64,000 nucleotides of DNA, taken from positions 620,001 to 684,000 of the forward strand of contig NZ_CP102275.1 of the NCBI RefSeq assembly GCF_025149465.1, read 5' to 3'. A program made the position numbers and the translations under genes. This DNA is from Thomasclavelia spiroformis DSM 1552. Lineage in GTDB: Bacteria > Bacillota_I > Bacilli_A > Erysipelotrichales > Coprobacillaceae. The notes beneath the pieces are model-generated. The model was not told the DNA's origin, did no database searches, and worked only from the letters and a program-made list of their open reading frames with translations. Positions 33,622 through 44,569 of the stretch are shown in pieces (within the stretch, counting starts at the first letter, position 1; every line of letters begins with the position of its first letter).

Positions 33622-34563
33622 TTGCCTATTAAAATACCAAATGACTTGCCAGCAAGCAAAATTTTAAAAGATGAAAATATATTTGTAATGGATGAAAATA
33701 GGGCTTTAACACAGCAAATTCGACCATTAAAATTATTAATTTTAAATATAATGCCTACAAAAATAGTAACAGAGACACAATTATTGAGAATGCTATCAAA
33801 TACGCCACTACAAATAGAAGTTGATTGGATTCATATGGCAAGTCATGAATCTAAAAATATATCTCAAGAACATCTTTTAGCATTTTATAAAACATTTGAT
33901 GAAATAAAAGAAAATCGTTATGATGGTTTGATTATAACAGGTGCGCCAGTAGAAAGATTAGAATTTGAAGATGTTGATTATTGGCAAGAAATGGAAAAAA
34001 TCCTAGAATGGTCAAAAAGGCATGTATTTAGTTCATTTTTTATTTGTTGGGCATCACAAGCAGCACTTTATCATTTTTATGGAATTAAAAAATATGAGTT
34101 AAAAGAAAAATTAACTGGGGTATATTGCCATCATACTAATGTAGAAAAAATGAAACGTAAAATTTTACGAGGTTTTGATTATCAATTTTATGCACCACAT
34201 TCTAGATATACAACAATCAAAAGGGAAGATATAGAATTAATTGATAATTTAGATATTTTAGCAAGTAGTAATGAAGCAGGAGTATATCTTATTGCTGAAA
34301 AAGATGGTTCTCGTTTTTTTGTAACAGGACATCCTGAATATGATCCTGATACATTAGATAAAGAATATAGACGAGATCTTGCGATTTCAAATGATGCAAC
34401 TATGCCAAAAAATTATTATGAAAATGATGATATTAATGGAGAAATATTAGTGAAGTGGCGTTCTCATGCATATTTATTATTCAGTAATTGGTTAAACTAT
34501 TATGTATATCAATTAACACCTTATGACTTAGATGATCTAGAGGAAATAAAAAAAAATCAATAG
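33622..34563 (+). CDS. metA: Homoserine O-acetyltransferase (MetA family)
   Basis: 313 residues from TTG 33622 (PIKIPNDLPASKIL, the standard MetA start, with GAGGGGG upstream). Acylates homoserine in the first committed step to methionine. The catalytic Cys is in FFICWASQAAL, and the His/Glu pair in TGHPEYDPDTL. Residue 111 is Glu in ITGAPVE; studies of the family link Glu here to acetyl-CoA and Gly (as in E. coli) to succinyl-CoA. O-acetylhomoserine is therefore the predicted product, matching the metY gene at 53 kb. No SAM or T-box riboswitch fits in the 63-base gap upstream. Confidence 0.93.
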   Translation: MPIKIPNDLPASKILKDENIFVMDENRALTQQIRPLKLLILNIMPTKIVTETQLLRMLSNTPLQIEVDWIHMASHESKNISQEHLLAFYKTFDEIKENRYDGLIITGAPVERLEFEDVDYWQEMEKILEWSKRHVFSSFFICWASQAALYHFYGIKKYELKEKLTGVYCHHTNVEKMKRKILRGFDYQFYAPHSRYTTIKREDIELIDNLDILASSNEAGVYLIAEKDGSRFFVTGHPEYDPDTLDKEYRRDLAISNDATMPKNYYENDDINGEILVKWRSHAYLLFSNWLNYYVYQLTPYDLDDLEEIKKNQ

Positions 34564-34564
34564 T

Positions 34565-34599
34565 AAGAAATTAGTTATTGTAACTGATTTCTTTTATTT
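34565..34599 (+). terminator. metA terminator
   Basis: AAGAAATTAGTTA (34565-34577) with TAACTGATTTCTT (34581-34593), 12 pairs plus one G-T, then TTATTTT. Confidence 0.8.
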
Positions 34600-35098
34600 T
34601 ATATAAAATAAAAAATTATAAATTCTAGATTTTTTTATTGCTGTTTCGTAAATAATCCAGCGATATCTTTTGTAAAAACTATGAAAGGAATTGACATGTT
34701 AAGTTATTTTAACTGTCGCTATAGAGGCAACAGGCTACGATTCTAATATGATGTTACAGGGTACATTGTTTGCATTTATAACGGTTAATATTGATTAGGA
34801 AAAATGAAAGAATTATACAGTTATAATATCCGATATATGTGACTGGTTAATGATAAAACTCTTTTTTACGGTTTTTCAAAGATTTATATTAGAAAATGGT
34901 ACTATGTCAAGAAAAAGTGCCAGTTAAATAGAGAAATGTCAGTAAAATGAAAACAGTATACAAAGTTTTTTTAAGTGGAATAAAATTGTTCATAAGCCAT
35001 ACCTCCAAAAGTTCATACTTATAAACAATTGGTTTATTATTCATAAAAGATATGAATAATAAGTTTCACAAACTCATTTAAATGTCAACACTTTTTTA
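34600..35098. other. Gene-poor stretch, probably decayed sequence
   Basis: About 500 bases with many stops in all frames. A short open piece near 34710-34800 reads VAIEATGYDSNMMLQG before a stop, which looks like part of a membrane transporter, but this is too short to assign. TGTCAAGAAAAAGTGCCAG near 34905 resembles the start of an IS21-type end; no transposase is visible. I see no RNA gene. The most likely reading is remnants of former genes or an element at the edge of the surface-protein island. Confidence 0.35.
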
Positions 35099-35165
35099 TA
35101 AAAAAAGAGGACACTAATATAAGATATCAGTGTCTATAATGTCATTTCCTTAACTTAATGACATT
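35099..35165 (-). terminator. Tandem hairpins ending the FIVAR/anchor gene
   Basis: On the minus strand, AATGTCATT/AATGACATT (35138-35146 with 35157-35165) is followed by GACACT/AGTGTC (35129-35134 with 35110-35115, with further inner pairing) and then CTC and seven T. The second hairpin is a good intrinsic terminator. Confidence 0.7.
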
Positions 35166-35184
35166 GGCTAGGTCAGTGGCTTTA

Positions 35185-36051
35185 TTAATTTTCTCTTCTT
35201 TTTGTCAGCTTAATTCCAACTAAACTTAATAACGCTAATCCTGCAAACATTCCAACTAAATCACTATCTCCAGTTTTTACACTTATGGTATCACCATTAC
35301 TTACTGGTGTTGTCGTAGTATTGTCTATTGGTGTGTTATCTCTAGGTGTTGTTATATTTGTTTCTAAGCTATTGATTGCTTTTTCTAATACATCTTTTGC
35401 ATTGTCTACTTCTTCTTGAGTGGCATTTGAATTTTCAAATACTGCCTTTGCTTCATTTAATGCTTTTGTTAATCCATCTAATGATGCTTTTGTATAATTT
35501 GCAGCATTTAATCCATTTGCTTCATTGATTAAATCTTTTAATAAATCTTTATTTGGTTTTAATCTTAAGTTCAAGAATGCTGTTACTAAATTTGTATATG
35601 CTTCATTTACTTCTGGTTGCATTGCATTTATATCGTTATATACACTAGTTGCTGCTGTTAAGGCATCATTAAATTCTGTCCATGTAGCTTCTGTATATTT
35701 AGTTGATTCTAATCCGCTTACTTTATCGATGAATGCTTTTAATGCTGTTTTATCTCCTTTGAAGAATTCTAATTTTTGCATGATACTTGCAAGTCTGTCA
35801 AATGCATTATTTATTTCAACTTGTGAAGCACTTGCATTATTGTAAACTTCATTAGCTTCATTTCTTGCCGCCTTGAATTCATCAGCTACTGCTGGAATTA
35901 CTTTTTCCAAATCTTTATCAGTAATTGCATTAGATAGATCTACCGCAATCTTTAATGCTGTTTTATCTGTTGATATATTTGTCATATTTCTTTTAATAAC
36001 AACTGGTTCGATGATTTTTTCTCCACCATTTTTAACACCATGATTTTTCAT
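35185..36051 (-). CDS. FIVAR-repeat wall-anchor segment, cut off from the upstream phosphoesterase
   Basis: 288 residues with no signal peptide and no ribosome site before the ATG at 36051. Three FIVAR-type helical repeats (about residues 28-235, with TKYTEATWTEFNDAL, ANYTKASLDGLTKALNEAK) lead to a Thr/Asn-rich linker. A sorting signal SVKTGDSD (about 255), a hydrophobic helix and RREN at the end complete it. The reading frame is the same as that of the phosphoesterase gene upstream, from which it is separated only by TGA (36064-36066) and 12 bases. By itself it could not be exported. I read it as the C-terminal half of one secreted, sortase-anchored protein, now split. Confidence 0.75.
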   Translation of the reverse strand: MKNHGVKNGGEKIIEPVVIKRNMTNISTDKTALKIAVDLSNAITDKDLEKVIPAVADEFKAARNEANEVYNNASASQVEINNAFDRLASIMQKLEFFKGDKTALKAFIDKVSGLESTKYTEATWTEFNDALTAATSVYNDINAMQPEVNEAYTNLVTAFLNLRLKPNKDLLKDLINEANGLNAANYTKASLDGLTKALNEAKAVFENSNATQEEVDNAKDVLEKAINSLETNITTPRDNTPIDNTTTTPVSNGDTISVKTGDSDLVGMFAGLALLSLVGIKLTKRREN

Positions 36052-36063
36052 TTGTAATTCAAT

Positions 36064-37485
36064 TCAATCTTTATATACATACATCATTAAGTTTTGAACC
36101 ACTTTAGAATCTTCAACAGTTGGTCCATCTTCAATATTATTATTATAATAGCGAAGTGAACCCATAAATGTAGAAATAAAACTTGGTTCAGCAATTTTTG
36201 CATCACAAATACCATTTTCTGTTTTTTCAACATAAAGAGGTTCAAGACGAATACTTTCGCCAGTTGCTCCATTTGTAAGATTAGTTAAAGCATAATTTTC
36301 ATTAGAAACTAAAACATATTTAGCTCCTTCAGTTAAGCTATTACTTTCAAGATATTCTTCACCAATTTGTTGATAAAATTTAATTGGACTAGCAGAACCA
36401 AGTGAAAATTTATTACCAGTTCCAATATGAAGACTTCTACCATTTTCTAAATATTTTAAAGTAAAGCTATCATCATTTTTAACAATTTCCCAACTCGAAC
36501 GATTTTCAATAGTATTTAAATTACCATCATATCCTAAATATTTTCCGATTTGAACATTTTGTAATGAATATCCGTCATTAGTTTTTTCTAAAGTCCATAA
36601 AACACTATCTCCAATACCTGAAATTTCAGGTTTAATGCTACCATCAGCTAAATATTCTGTAGTTCGTTGAGCTGTATCACTACGAATATAAGCACTATCT
36701 GTACCATGGTCATGTCCATAAAAATATAAAACATTAGGGTATTTAGAAAGAATTGATTTGAATTTATTATCACATTCAACAGTCATACCTTTTGAAGAAG
36801 ATGATAAACTATGTGAATCTCTAAATGGGAAATGACCAATTACAAAAACTGTTTTATTTTTTCCCAGTTCTTCAAGTTTATTATCTACCCAACTCATTGT
36901 TCCATCACTATAAGCATAATTAGAATTTTGTTTTCCACCTTCTAACATTTCATGAGAAGTATTAAGACAAATAAAATCGAATCCTTTTATTACATAATGA
37001 TATGCAAGAAGTTGAGGTTCTCCTTTATATTCTTCATAATAACTTTCTAAATCAGATAATTCACCAACATTTTGTTTCATATAAAATTCATAATATGGTG
37101 CACTATCATAACCATCTCTTTCACCAGCATTGTAATCATGATTGCCAGTTATCCAAAGTGTATTTTTTGTTACTTTATTTGTTTCGTTTACAACTTTATT
37201 TAATACAGATTCTAAAACAGGTTTTGATACATAGGAATCCGATGTTACATCACCTCCAATAACTAAAACATCAGTATTTTCGTTTGTAGCTAAGTCGTCG
37301 CATACTTTAGTAATGGAATTTCTAATATTCCCACTTTCAAGTGTGCTTTGCTGATTATGTAAATCAGACATAAATGCAACTGTTAATAATGGTTCTTCAG
37401 TAGCACTGACAGGATTAAAAATACACAATCCTATTATTATCATTAAACAAATAGCGGTGGCAATAATTTTCTTTATTGCTTTCAT
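36064..37485 (-). CDS. Secreted metallophosphoesterase, N-terminal part of a split wall-anchored protein
   Basis: 473 residues from ATG 37485 (AAAGGGATG upstream). Signal peptide at residues 1-28 (KAIKKIIATAICLMIIIGL then SATEE). The calcineurin-like phosphoesterase domain has all five blocks: SDLHN (Asp41, His43), GGDVTSDS, ITGNHDYN, GHFPFRDSH and YGHDHG. The part after about residue 310 is beta-rich and may bind ligand or be a lectin-like module (unassigned). The protein ends at a TGA right where an in-frame FIVAR and anchor region would follow. Substrate unknown: nucleotide, phospholipid or sugar phosphate are all possible. If only this half is made, it would be released rather than anchored. 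Confidence 0.8.
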   Translation of the reverse strand: MKAIKKIIATAICLMIIIGLCIFNPVSATEEPLLTVAFMSDLHNQQSTLESGNIRNSITKVCDDLATNENTDVLVIGGDVTSDSYVSKPVLESVLNKVVNETNKVTKNTLWITGNHDYNAGERDGYDSAPYYEFYMKQNVGELSDLESYYEEYKGEPQLLAYHYVIKGFDFICLNTSHEMLEGGKQNSNYAYSDGTMSWVDNKLEELGKNKTVFVIGHFPFRDSHSLSSSSKGMTVECDNKFKSILSKYPNVLYFYGHDHGTDSAYIRSDTAQRTTEYLADGSIKPEISGIGDSVLWTLEKTNDGYSLQNVQIGKYLGYDGNLNTIENRSSWEIVKNDDSFTLKYLENGRSLHIGTGNKFSLGSASPIKFYQQIGEEYLESNSLTEGAKYVLVSNENYALTNLTNGATGESIRLEPLYVEKTENGICDAKIAEPSFISTFMGSLRYYNNNIEDGPTVEDSKVVQNLMMYVYKD

Positions 37486-37588
37486 TTTTGATTCATCCCT
37501 TTCTATAATTAATTCTAATTTAATCTTATCCAATTTATAAAGAAAAAAGTAGGTAAAAAAATGTAAATTATTATACAATTTTTTACAC

Positions 37589-37615
37589 AAAAAAAAACAA
37601 TCAAAAAAATGATTG
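37589..37615 (-). terminator. Terminator of tRNA-Leu
   Basis: On the minus strand CAATCA / TGATTG (37610-37615 with 37598-37603) closes a 6-base T loop and is followed by nine T. Confidence 0.75.
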
Positions 37616-37655
37616 ATTTTATATTAAAATACGATTAATTTGAACAATTTTACAA

Positions 37656-37742
37656 TGGTGCAGACAGCGAGATTTGAACTCGCACGAGCAATTGCTCACT
37701 ACCCCCTCAAGATAGCGCGTATACCAGTTTCGCCATGTCTGC
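37656..37742 (-). tRNA. tRNA-Leu (GAG)
   Basis: 87 bases including an encoded CCA. Acceptor stem GCAGACA with TGTCTGC, discriminator A. The D-arm has GGCGAAACTGG, the anticodon arm CTATCTTGAGGGGGTAG gives GAG, a long variable arm (GAGCAATTGCTC) marks a class II tRNA, and the T-arm is GCGAGTTCAAATCTCGC. It decodes CUC/CUU. Confidence 0.95.
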
Positions 37743-39770: not shown

Positions 39771-42700
39771 ATGAAAAAAGAAAAGGAGTTGGATGTCTAG
39801 TTCTAACAACTTTGTTGTTTGGAACAACAGTTACGACTCCACTAATGAGTGTCCCGATTTATGCACAGGAAAGTAGAATTGCTCCAACTAATCAATATTC
39901 AGTTGATCAAGTAACTACTATAACTAATGGATCAGGGGCGATTAATGCCAGTGAAGATGTTGCAAACTATGCTAATTTAGATCAGTTTACATTAAATGGA
40001 ACTTTCAGTTTTACAAGCAACAGTAATAGTGGTGTTAATGCAATCTTCTTTATAGGAGATAATACGACTGCAAACAATTATTTTACGTTGTATGCAATTC
40101 CAAGTTCAAAAAGATTAGGAGTAGAGTTAAGAAATATTTCTGGAAATCAGATGTTAAGTAATTCTTATGTAACTCTTAATGATGTCGATTTTACGATGGA
40201 ACATAAAGTTACTTTTACAATGTCTAAAAATAACTATTTCCGTATTTATTTAGATGGAAAAAAAGTATTAGAAGGAAATGCACCATCTGGCTTTACTAAT
40301 GAAGTAATTGATAATCCTAATTATATGGGATTTGGTGTTGGAAGTAGAGCTAGTGGAAATAATTATCCAATGACTGGTAATTTAAAAAATTTAGAATTGT
40401 ACAATTGTGCTTTAAGTGAAAGTGAAATTATGTCTTATCATTTAGGAGCACTTGAAAGTATTGCATATAAATATGAAAATATTTATTATCAAGATAGTAA
40501 TGTGCAAAGAGTGCAAGATAATGAAAATATTTCTAAGTTAGTTTCTATGGATAGTGGAAGTATTTCAATTAGATATAAAGTTAATGATCAGAATTTAGGA
40601 AGAATGTCATTGTTTTCTATCTCAGATAATCTTAGTGAAAATAAATATATAGATTTATATGTAGATCCAAGTAACAATATTTTTGGATTAGATGTAGAAG
40701 GAACAAAAGATTTTGTTATGCCAACTACATCACTTAATCGAGCTAATCGAACAGTCAAAGATACATCTTGGCATACAATTACGATTACAAAAGAAAATGG
40801 TAATGCTAAAGGATTTATGTTTTATTTAGATGGGGCTTATGTTGATAAATATACTTCAGCAGTTCCAGAAGGATTCTTTAGTCTTTTAGCTGATGCTAAT
40901 GCTGTTAACTTTGGTTTTATTGATACATCAGGAGATGACTTAGAATCATTGACAGGTGCAATTGATTATGTTAGAGCATACAATGAAATATTAGATCCAA
41001 GTACAATTTTACAAGAACATACTCTAACAAATTGGCAACCTGGTCAAGAAATCGATATGACTAATGCAATAAAAACAGAAAATGAAGATTTATATTATGC
41101 GGGATATGAAAATTCAAGTTCATATCGAATTCCATCATTATTAAAAACTTCAAAAGGTACCTTATTAGCTGCAATTGATAAACGAATTACAGGTGCACAA
41201 GATTGTGGAAATATTGATATTGCAGTTAGAAGACGTGAAGCTAATCAAGAAAATTTTGGAGATCCAATTATTATTAACGATTTAATTTCTAATCCAAACA
41301 ATCCTTCATCATCAGCTTTTTTAATTGATAGTAGCATGGTCGAAGATAAAGAAACAGGTCGTATTTTTTTGCTTGCTGACATGTTTCCAGAATCTTCTGG
41401 GTTAATGGATACAAGTCAGTTAACAACAGGAACAGGATATAAAGAAATTGATGGCGTTGATTATTTACAGTTATTTGACCAAGCAGGTAATGAATATACT
41501 GTTAGACCGGAAGATGGATTTGGGTATGTTTATGATAGTCAAAATAATAAAACTGGCTATACAGTTATTTTAGAAAGTGATGCTCCATATCACGAACGTG
41601 GTAGCCTTTATTTAAATGGTGAATATAAAGGTAACATTTATATGTTAAAAAATGGACCTGAAAAAGGTGAATTACATGTATTAAATACACAATATTTATG
41701 GTTATATTATTCTGATGATGATGGTAAAACATGGTCTAATCCAATTGATATAACACCTCAGGTTAAAGCTGATTGGATGATGTTTTTAGGAACAGGGCCT
41801 GGCGTTGGAATTCAAATGGAAGATGGTACTCTAGGTTTTCCAGTTTATAGTGCAAATAAAAATGTTGGAGGTAGCCAGTCTTCAGCTATGATTATTAGTA
41901 ATGATGGAGGAAAAACTTGGCAGTTAGGTGATTCACCACAAACTAATATGGGTAATGACCGTGAAACAATGAATAATAGCGGTAAAATGTTTACAGAATC
42001 ACAAGCAGTTCAATTAAATAACGGACAAGTTAAATTATTTATGAGAAATACTTATGCAAACAAGGTGTATGTTGCAACAAGTAGTGATAATGGATTGACT
42101 TGGGATAAAGTAGAACAAATTGATATTAATGAGGTATATTGTCAATTATCAGTAACTAATTTTACTCGTAATGGAAAAGAATATGTTGTAATGACAAATC
42201 CAGATCATTCTCCAAGAACACAGGGAATGGTTCATATTGGTGAGGTAGATCAAGCAACAGGTGATATTACATGGTTAGATAGCCAAATTTTAAATACAGG
42301 AAAATTTTTATACTCATGTCTAAGCGTATTACAAAATGATGATGAAGATGTTCGTTTTGGTTTGTTATATGAAGATGATACTGATGGAACATTTAGAATA
42401 AAGTATACAGAATTTAATGATGATTTTATTTATGCTGGAACTAAAACGGAAGAATTAAAAGATCCAAAATTAGTAGATTATAACGTTAGTTTTGATAATG
42501 ATAAAATTAATGTAGCTTTAACATTTGATCAAGAACTACTAGCAATTGGAAATCCACAATTAAAATTAAATGTAGGTAGTCAAGAAATAATTGCTGATTA
42601 TAAAGAAGGTTCTAGCAGTGATACAATCTTTTTCGAAGCTACATTACCAAAACAAATCAATGGTGTAATGAAAGCAGTCGAATTACTTGAAACTAATGGT

Positions 42701-44569
42701 ATTATTGAAAATATTAAAAATGGTAAAGTAGCTGTATTAAATACTAATATTTACGATTTTACTGAAATTACTAGCGGTATTACTGTTTCTAGCTATACAT
42801 CACAACATTCATCTAGTACTGCAGAAAATACAGATGGTGCAGCAGTTAATGTTATTGATGGTAATATAAATACATATTGGCATTCAACATGGGGAAATGC
42901 AAATATCAACTTACCACAATCAGTAACTCTAAAATTAGATAAAACAAAAACACTATATAAATTAGCATATACACCACGTCAAAATAGTAATAATGGTAGA
43001 ATTAAAGAATATGAAATTGCAACAAGTATTGATGGTAACGAATTTACAACAGTTGCCTCAGGACAATGGGTAGATAGTAAAGATATTCAATATGTTGAAT
43101 TTATTCCTACTGATGCAAATTATATTAAAATAACAGCAACAGAAGCATATGGCGGTGGTGCAAAACAAAGTTGTAATATTGCAGAAATTGGTTTATTTGA
43201 ATATAGTGATGGGGTAATTAATGTGGGTGATAAAACTGCATTAACTAACTTAGTTAATACAGTTAAAGATTTAGATACATCTATTTATGCAAAACCTACA
43301 GTTGATAATCTTATTAATGCAATAAATGAAGCTCAAAAATTATTAGATACAAATCTTGTATCACAACAAATGCTAGATAATGCATATACAAAATTAATAA
43401 ATGCAAAAACTGCATTGATTAATATTAGTAAAGCTACTAATGCACTAGCAAAATTAGATGAACTAAAAGAAGAAAATTATACACCAGAATCATGGCAAAT
43501 CTTTATCAATGAATTAACAACATTAAAAGAACAATTAAATGATATAACATCATCAAGAGAAGTTTTAGATATTGTTGTTAAAGCAGATTATATTGAAAGT
43601 CAATTAATTAAGGCAGAAATTACAGATACAAATAAAACAGCATTAAAGATTGCAATTGATATAGCAAGCTTAATCAGTGAAGAAAGTTTAGAAAATGTAA
43701 TACCTGTTGTAGTTGACGAATTCAAAGCAGCATTAAGTGAAGCAAATGAAGTATACAATAATACTAGTGCTACTCAAAAAGAAGTAAATAATGCATTTGA
43801 TCGACTTGCAAATGCAATGCAAAAATTAGAATTTTATAAAGGCAATAAAACTAAATTAATTGAGGCAATCGAAGAAGCTAACAGTAAACAGGAAGAAGAT
43901 TATACAGCAAATTCATGGAAAGCATTGCAAGAAGCATTACAAGAAGCTAATAAAATATTAGCTGATGAAAATGTAATGCAAAAAGAAGTAGATGAAGCAA
44001 CAAATAAATTACAAGAAGCACTTGATAATTTAGTAACAACAGTTGATAAGAGTTTATTACAAGTATTTGTAGAATATGTAAGTGGATTAGATTCAAATAA
44101 ATATACAGAAGCTACATGGAAAGCATTTGAAACAGAATTAACTGAAGCAAATGTGATATTAAAAGATGCAAATGCAACACAGGAACAAGTAGACAATGCT
44201 TATAATCAACTAGTAAAAGCATACTTAGATTTAAGATTAATTCCAGATAAGAGTTTATTAGAAGAATTAATCAATAAGGCAGAAGGATTAAACGTAGCAA
44301 ATTATACAAAAGCAACATTTGATGGCTTAACAAAAGCATTAAATGAAGCAAAAGCAGTATATGAAAATCCAAATGCCACTCAAAAAGAAGTAGATAGTGC
44401 AAAAGCTACATTAGAAAAAGCAATCAATAACTTAGAAGTAACACCAATAAATAATGGTGATACTACAAGTGTAAAAACTGGAGATTCTAGTTATATTACA
44501 ACAAGTTTAGGCTTGATTATGACATCTGGATTAATTGCAAGCTATTTAAAAAAGAAAAAGAAATCATAA
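39771..44569 (+). CDS. Multidomain wall-anchored sialidase (NanA-like), frameshifted at its start
   Basis: About 1,600 residues. The main frame is open from 39779 on, but the only ATG with a good ribosome site (AAAGGAGGAAAGG, ATG 39771) is out of frame: six A follow it where seven would give MKKRKGVGCLVLTTLLFGTT, a normal signal peptide. As read, it stops after nine codons. Counting from 39812: two concanavalin-like domains (about 27-211, 223-403), sialidase propeller (413-876) with YRIPS, Asp-boxes SDDDGKTW, SNDGGKTW, SSDNGLTW, catalytic Tyr context KFLYSCLSV; an F5/8 discoidin domain (985-1130); about five FIVAR repeats (1140-1546); sorting signal VKTGDS, hydrophobic helix and KKKKKS. The propeller follows pneumococcal NanA closely. 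It would release sialic acid from host glycans at the cell surface. Confidence 0.88.

What the first reader, a model, noticed from the sequence alone, without database searches (positions are those of the whole stretch)
35185..37485. Secreted phosphoesterase separated from its own FIVAR/wall-anchor tail by one in-frame TGA
The phosphoesterase ends at TGA (36064-36066). Reading on in the same frame gives four codons, then the ATG of a 288-codon region with three FIVAR repeats and a sortase-type C-terminus. The downstream part has no signal peptide and no ribosome site. Joined, the two make a complete secreted and anchored enzyme of about 765 residues. The stop therefore turns an anchored protein into a released one, or has killed the gene, or is recoded or a base error.
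Basis: partly seen in the sequence, partly recalled or inferred. Interest (0 to 1): 0.6.

Follow-up and report, generated by a model that had tools for sequence, protein, structure and literature searches.

The report
Surface phosphoesterase gene broken by stop
A bacterium carries an imported gene for a wall-anchored phosphoesterase that is broken by one stop codon inside the enzyme domain itself, which makes it an ordinary decaying gene and not an enzyme switched from anchored to released.

Summary
On the minus strand a secreted metallophosphoesterase frame (37485-36067) ends at TGA 36064-36066. The same frame then continues for 292 codons with three FIVAR repeats and a C-terminal sorting-type tail, without its own signal peptide or ribosome site. 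The interpretation has to change. Five relatives from Clostridia and Bacteroidales genomes, all open at this point, place the stop inside the catalytic domain. The segment is YVYxD-[stop]-IELQMKNHG; the stop column is Arg in four and His in one, and ten further homologues all have Arg. In a model of the intact Clostridia orthologue, the stop falls in the turn between the last two long strands of the fold. It therefore removes core strands together with the anchor, so release of a working enzyme is unlikely. Reassignment of TGA and selenocysteine are not supported. The gene is absent from the eight other species held of its genus. It sits beside transposase remnants where relatives carry tRNA-Thr(GGU), which this genome lacks. 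At least five other FIVAR surface genes here look broken too, by TAA, TAG or frameshifts. Best reading: a horizontally acquired surface enzyme gene recently inactivated by one nonsense substitution. Sequencing error cannot be excluded.

The parts
36067..37485 (-). Upstream part: signal peptide, Metallophos domain and a beta-rich, weakly ricin-like insert, up to the stop (473 aa)
   Evidence: weak ricin-like match in the orthologue L084
36064..36066 (-). In-frame TGA; the column is Arg in 4 and His in 1 of the five relatives read, and Arg in ten further homologues
35986..36063 (-). C-terminal strands of the phosphoesterase domain, beyond the stop (IELQMKNHGVKNGGEKIIEPVVIKRN)
   Evidence: Conserved in relatives; core strands in the model of L084; inside the range aligned to solved phosphatases
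35185..36051 (-). 288-codon frame from the first ATG after the stop: end of the enzyme domain, three FIVAR repeats, SVKTGD sorting-type C-terminus
   Evidence: tail shape shared with other FIVAR genes of the genome
35110..35134 (-). Terminator-like hairpin after the end of the tail
   Evidence: pattern match only
34894..34959 (.). Remnants of IS ends repeated elsewhere in the genome; a full copy carries an IS3-type transposase
34625..34896 (.). Decayed fragment of a transposase gene, 83% identical to five copies elsewhere; the copy read encodes a 528-aa IS1182-like protein (family named from memory of the sequence type)
37656..37742 (-). tRNA-Leu(GAG); in seven related species examined a tRNA-Thr(GGU) lies next to it, here replaced by the phosphoesterase gene

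Best explanation
A horizontally acquired gene for a secreted, surface-anchored calcineurin-like phosphoesterase was recently inactivated by one nonsense substitution. Shown: the stop lies within the catalytic fold; the rest of the frame is still open and shows coding constraint; the gene is absent from sister species; insertion-sequence remnants lie beside it; sister FIVAR genes in the genome are also broken. Inferred: translation stops at a turn before the last long strand, so the product lacks the last strands of the enzyme as well as FIVAR repeats and anchor, and is probably misfolded and degraded; the downstream part is not made, except perhaps by rare read-through.
For: Relatives are open through the position: L084 with FIVAR-type repeats downstream, L083 to its contig end two residues later, L085-L087 with other tails; the column is Arg, Arg, Arg, His, Arg in L083-L087. 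Ten further homologues have Arg; three of them (L136-L138) are enzyme-only proteins that end about 30 residues after it. AlphaFold model of L084 (mean pLDDT 73, pTM 0.70): strands 433-440 and 444-452 form a hairpin with 465-468 behind; the stop column is 444. Solved metallophosphatases align over model ranges that end at 451-474 (2nxf Z 21.5, rmsd 3.4, 262 aligned; Lmo2642 2xmo Z 20.3, rmsd 4.0, 275 aligned). No close relative in 8 other species of the genus or in 315 genomes of the order; closest are two Clostridia MAGs at 57-59%. Flanks are conserved in relatives, the gene is not. IS remnants beside it. Other FIVAR genes are broken by TAA, TAG and apparent frameshifts.
Against: No other strain of the species could be read, so neither the age nor the fixation of the stop is known. 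The frame has only this one lesion, which also fits a base error or a young polymorphism. Expression and stability of the truncated product were not tested.
Confidence: 0.75

Rival explanations
1. Base error in the assembly: the real gene is intact and makes an anchored enzyme.
For: Single lesion in an otherwise open frame; no raw reads or second strain could be checked.
Against: The genome is one contig, 100% complete. The interruptions found by the same-frame scan all lie in FIVAR surface genes, although the sampled stretches also hold other genes; this bias is only suggestive, because the stretches were chosen for FIVAR genes.
Confidence: 0.12
2. The stop turns an anchored enzyme into a released, working one, as premature stops in Listeria inlA yield a truncated, secreted InlA (PMC6558679).
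For: Signal peptide and the metallophosphatase motif region lie upstream of the stop; premature-stop release is documented for InlA. A second gene of this genome (L055) also has stops downstream of its enzyme region.
Against: Here the stop is inside the enzyme fold and removes its final strands, at a conserved position. Other broken FIVAR genes have the lesion near the start or are spread over several frames, which would not release an enzyme.
Confidence: 0.08
3. The TGA is read as an amino acid (reassigned codon, selenocysteine or programmed read-through), so the full anchored protein is made.
For: The downstream frame is intact and shows coding constraint. UGA followed by A is, from general knowledge and not tested here, a comparatively leaky context.
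Against: The column is Arg/His, not Trp or Cys. Eight of 129 long frames in the sampled stretches end in TGA; sister genes are interrupted by TAA and TAG. No SelB match reaches the cut-off. No stable structure after the stop (z 0.77).
Confidence: 0.04

Closest known systems
Calcineurin-like phosphoesterases of the Metallophos family (PF00149), surface-attached forms in Clostridia
   Same: Motif region and signal peptide; L084 has enzyme plus FIVAR-type region in one frame and ends in SLH domains
   Different: Frame interrupted within the last strands; sorting-type tail where L084 has SLH domains
Premature stops in Listeria monocytogenes inlA (PMC6558679)
   Same: A nonsense codon separates a secreted surface protein from its anchor
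   Different: There a truncated, secreted InlA is produced; here the catalytic fold itself is cut
FIVAR surface enzyme genes of the same genome, e.g. the sialidase at 39812-44569
   Same: FIVAR repeats and SVKTGD C-terminal tail
   Different: Most are intact; this one and at least five others look broken

Membership tests
Metallophos (PF00149) phosphoesterase | Profile match over the motif region | tested here: met
   E 1.8e-14, 55 bits against a cut-off of 21.5
Metallophos (PF00149) phosphoesterase | Complete fold including the C-terminal strands in the translated product | tested here: not met
   Stop before strand 444-452 of the L084 model; so the gene descends from the family, but a working product is not claimed
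FIVAR repeat surface protein | FIVAR domains over the cut-off | tested here: met
   Downstream part, 88.6 bits against 29.2, three stretches
Sortase-anchored protein | LPXTG-like motif, hydrophobic stretch and positive tail | tested here: inconclusive
   SVKTGD + hydrophobic + KRREN by eye, shared by sister genes; no anchor profile was listed by Pfam or NCBIfam
Pseudogene by nonsense substitution | Relatives open through the stop; stop inside a conserved domain; no separate start for the rest | tested here: met
Pseudogene by nonsense substitution | Loss of function of the product | not testable with these tools
   Needs expression and assay
Selenoprotein | SelB, SECIS-like hairpin, Cys/Sec column | tested here: not met
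TGA reassigned to Trp (table 4) | TGA not used as a stop; Trp at the column | tested here: not met
   TGA ends 8 of 129 long frames; column is Arg/His

The most novel reading that the evidence does not exclude
The in-frame stops in several FIVAR surface enzyme genes of this genome are reversible or selected changes that vary, from strain to strain, which enzymes are anchored, released or silent.
Probability: 0.05. Interest if true: 0.5.

Novelty: new member of a known kind. Interest (0 to 1): 0.15.

Why it matters
Mostly as a caution: an annotation would show a 'secreted phosphoesterase' and a separate 'FIVAR protein', whereas this is one broken gene. It also shows a surface-enzyme repertoire in which about six of some 43 FIVAR genes look broken, and an insertion site where a tRNA gene was lost.

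Tried and rejected
The first genome-collection and viral scans, and phage and plasmid searches, with the whole upstream part found no relative; a query of two motif stretches did. Folding the read-through window protein alone gave a useless model (pLDDT 37). Sequence searches of solved structures gave nothing. Before the relatives were found, a Trp column seemed possible; the alignment shows Arg/His. No remnant of the lost tRNA-Thr was found near the gene.

Full report
What is there. The gene runs on the minus strand. From ATG at 37485 a frame of 473 codons encodes a signal peptide, a calcineurin-like phosphoesterase domain (Pfam Metallophos, residues 35-260) and a further beta-rich region, and ends at TGA 36066-36064. 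The same frame continues for 292 codons with three FIVAR repeats and a tail SVKTGD-hydrophobic-KRREN to TAA at 35185. The downstream part has no leader and no ribosome-site-like sequence before its first ATG. A terminator-like hairpin follows the tail, and none is found on that strand after the TGA.

Relatives. No close relative was found in the eight other species of the genus, in 315 genomes of the order, in phages, in plasmids or in viral contigs. A query of two motif stretches found two Clostridia MAGs (L083, L084) and two Bacteroidales MAGs, one with two loci (L085 and L087; L086). L083 and L084 are 59% and 57% identical to the upstream part. All five frames are open at the position of the TGA: L084 continues into FIVAR-type repeats and SLH domains (964 residues from its ATG), L085-L087 continue into other C-terminal regions, and the L083 contig ends two residues after the preceding Asp. 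The residue at the stop column is Arg in L083, L084, L085 and L087 and His in L086. Ten further homologues from other genomes (L129-L138) all have Arg there; three of them consist of the enzyme domain alone and end about 30 residues later.

Where the stop lies. It is therefore not in a linker. In an AlphaFold model of the L084 enzyme domain, built on six sequences (mean pLDDT 73, pTM 0.70), strand 433-440 and strand 444-452 (RIELQMKNY) form a hairpin, followed by strand 465-468; the stop column is 444, at the turn. Solved metallophosphatases align to model ranges that end at 451-474, for example the zebrafish dimetal phosphatase 2nxf (Z 21.5, to 470), Lmo2642 (Z 20.3, to 468) and purple acid phosphatases (Z about 18, to 472). 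So the post-stop strands belong to the common fold. The product of the 473-codon frame lacks them. That it misfolds is inference.

Recoding. The column is not Trp, Cys or Sec. TGA ends 8 of 129 long frames in the sampled stretches. SelB matches stay under the cut-off. The RNA after the stop folds no better than shuffles. Programmed read-through remains possible but nothing supports it.

Origin of the locus. In the relatives whose contigs span the site, pepV, tRNA-Leu(GAG), tRNA-Thr(GGU) and metA lie together, with extra DNA in some. In this genome the phosphoesterase gene and remnants of two kinds of insertion sequence lie between tRNA-Leu and metA, and tRNA-Thr(GGU) is missing. It was found in all eight other species and not in this genome by the same search. 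This supports arrival by transfer and rearrangement; the direction and the vehicle are inference.

Decay of sister genes. The genome has 140 FIVAR matches in 44 open frames (counted by hand). In the stretches examined, in-frame stops split the window gene (TGA), a gene in L055 (TAA twice, in two of three tandem repeats that are 95-97% identical), a GH3-like gene in L058 (TAG) and a gene in L073 (TAA). Two more, in L059 and L065, are spread over several frames. The stretches were chosen because they carry FIVAR genes, so the rate cannot be compared fairly with other genes. The tail of the window gene keeps dN/dS of 0.28-0.69 against 28 sister tails, which reflects its whole history and fits a recent lesion.

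Conclusion. The best reading is a horizontally acquired surface phosphoesterase gene recently inactivated by one nonsense substitution. A base error cannot be excluded without reads. A released working enzyme, as in Listeria inlA (PMC6558679), is unlikely here because the catalytic fold is cut.

Noticed in passing
window 34560-37660; L102-L108: tRNA-Thr(GGU), present in all eight other species of the genus, is absent from this genome; the phosphoesterase gene and IS remnants occupy its place.
   Followed up: partly
L055:3279 and L055:3783 (G000:C1:90000-109999): The same TAA interrupts two of three tandem repeats (95-97% identical) between a glycoside-hydrolase-like region and its FIVAR tail.
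   Followed up: partly
L058:12172; L073:6677: In-frame TAG in a GH3-like gene near its start, and TAA in another FIVAR gene of the same genome.
   Followed up: partly
L059, L065: FIVAR genes spread over several reading frames, probably frameshifted.
   Followed up: partly
L007, L013: Distant phosphoesterase homologues in two other genomes of the order also contain in-frame stops; one of the genomes is only 58% complete, so errors are possible.
   Followed up: no
L085, L086, L087: Bacteroidales forms carry other C-terminal additions, and L086 has extra copies of the beta-rich insert between the motif region and the last strands.
   Followed up: no
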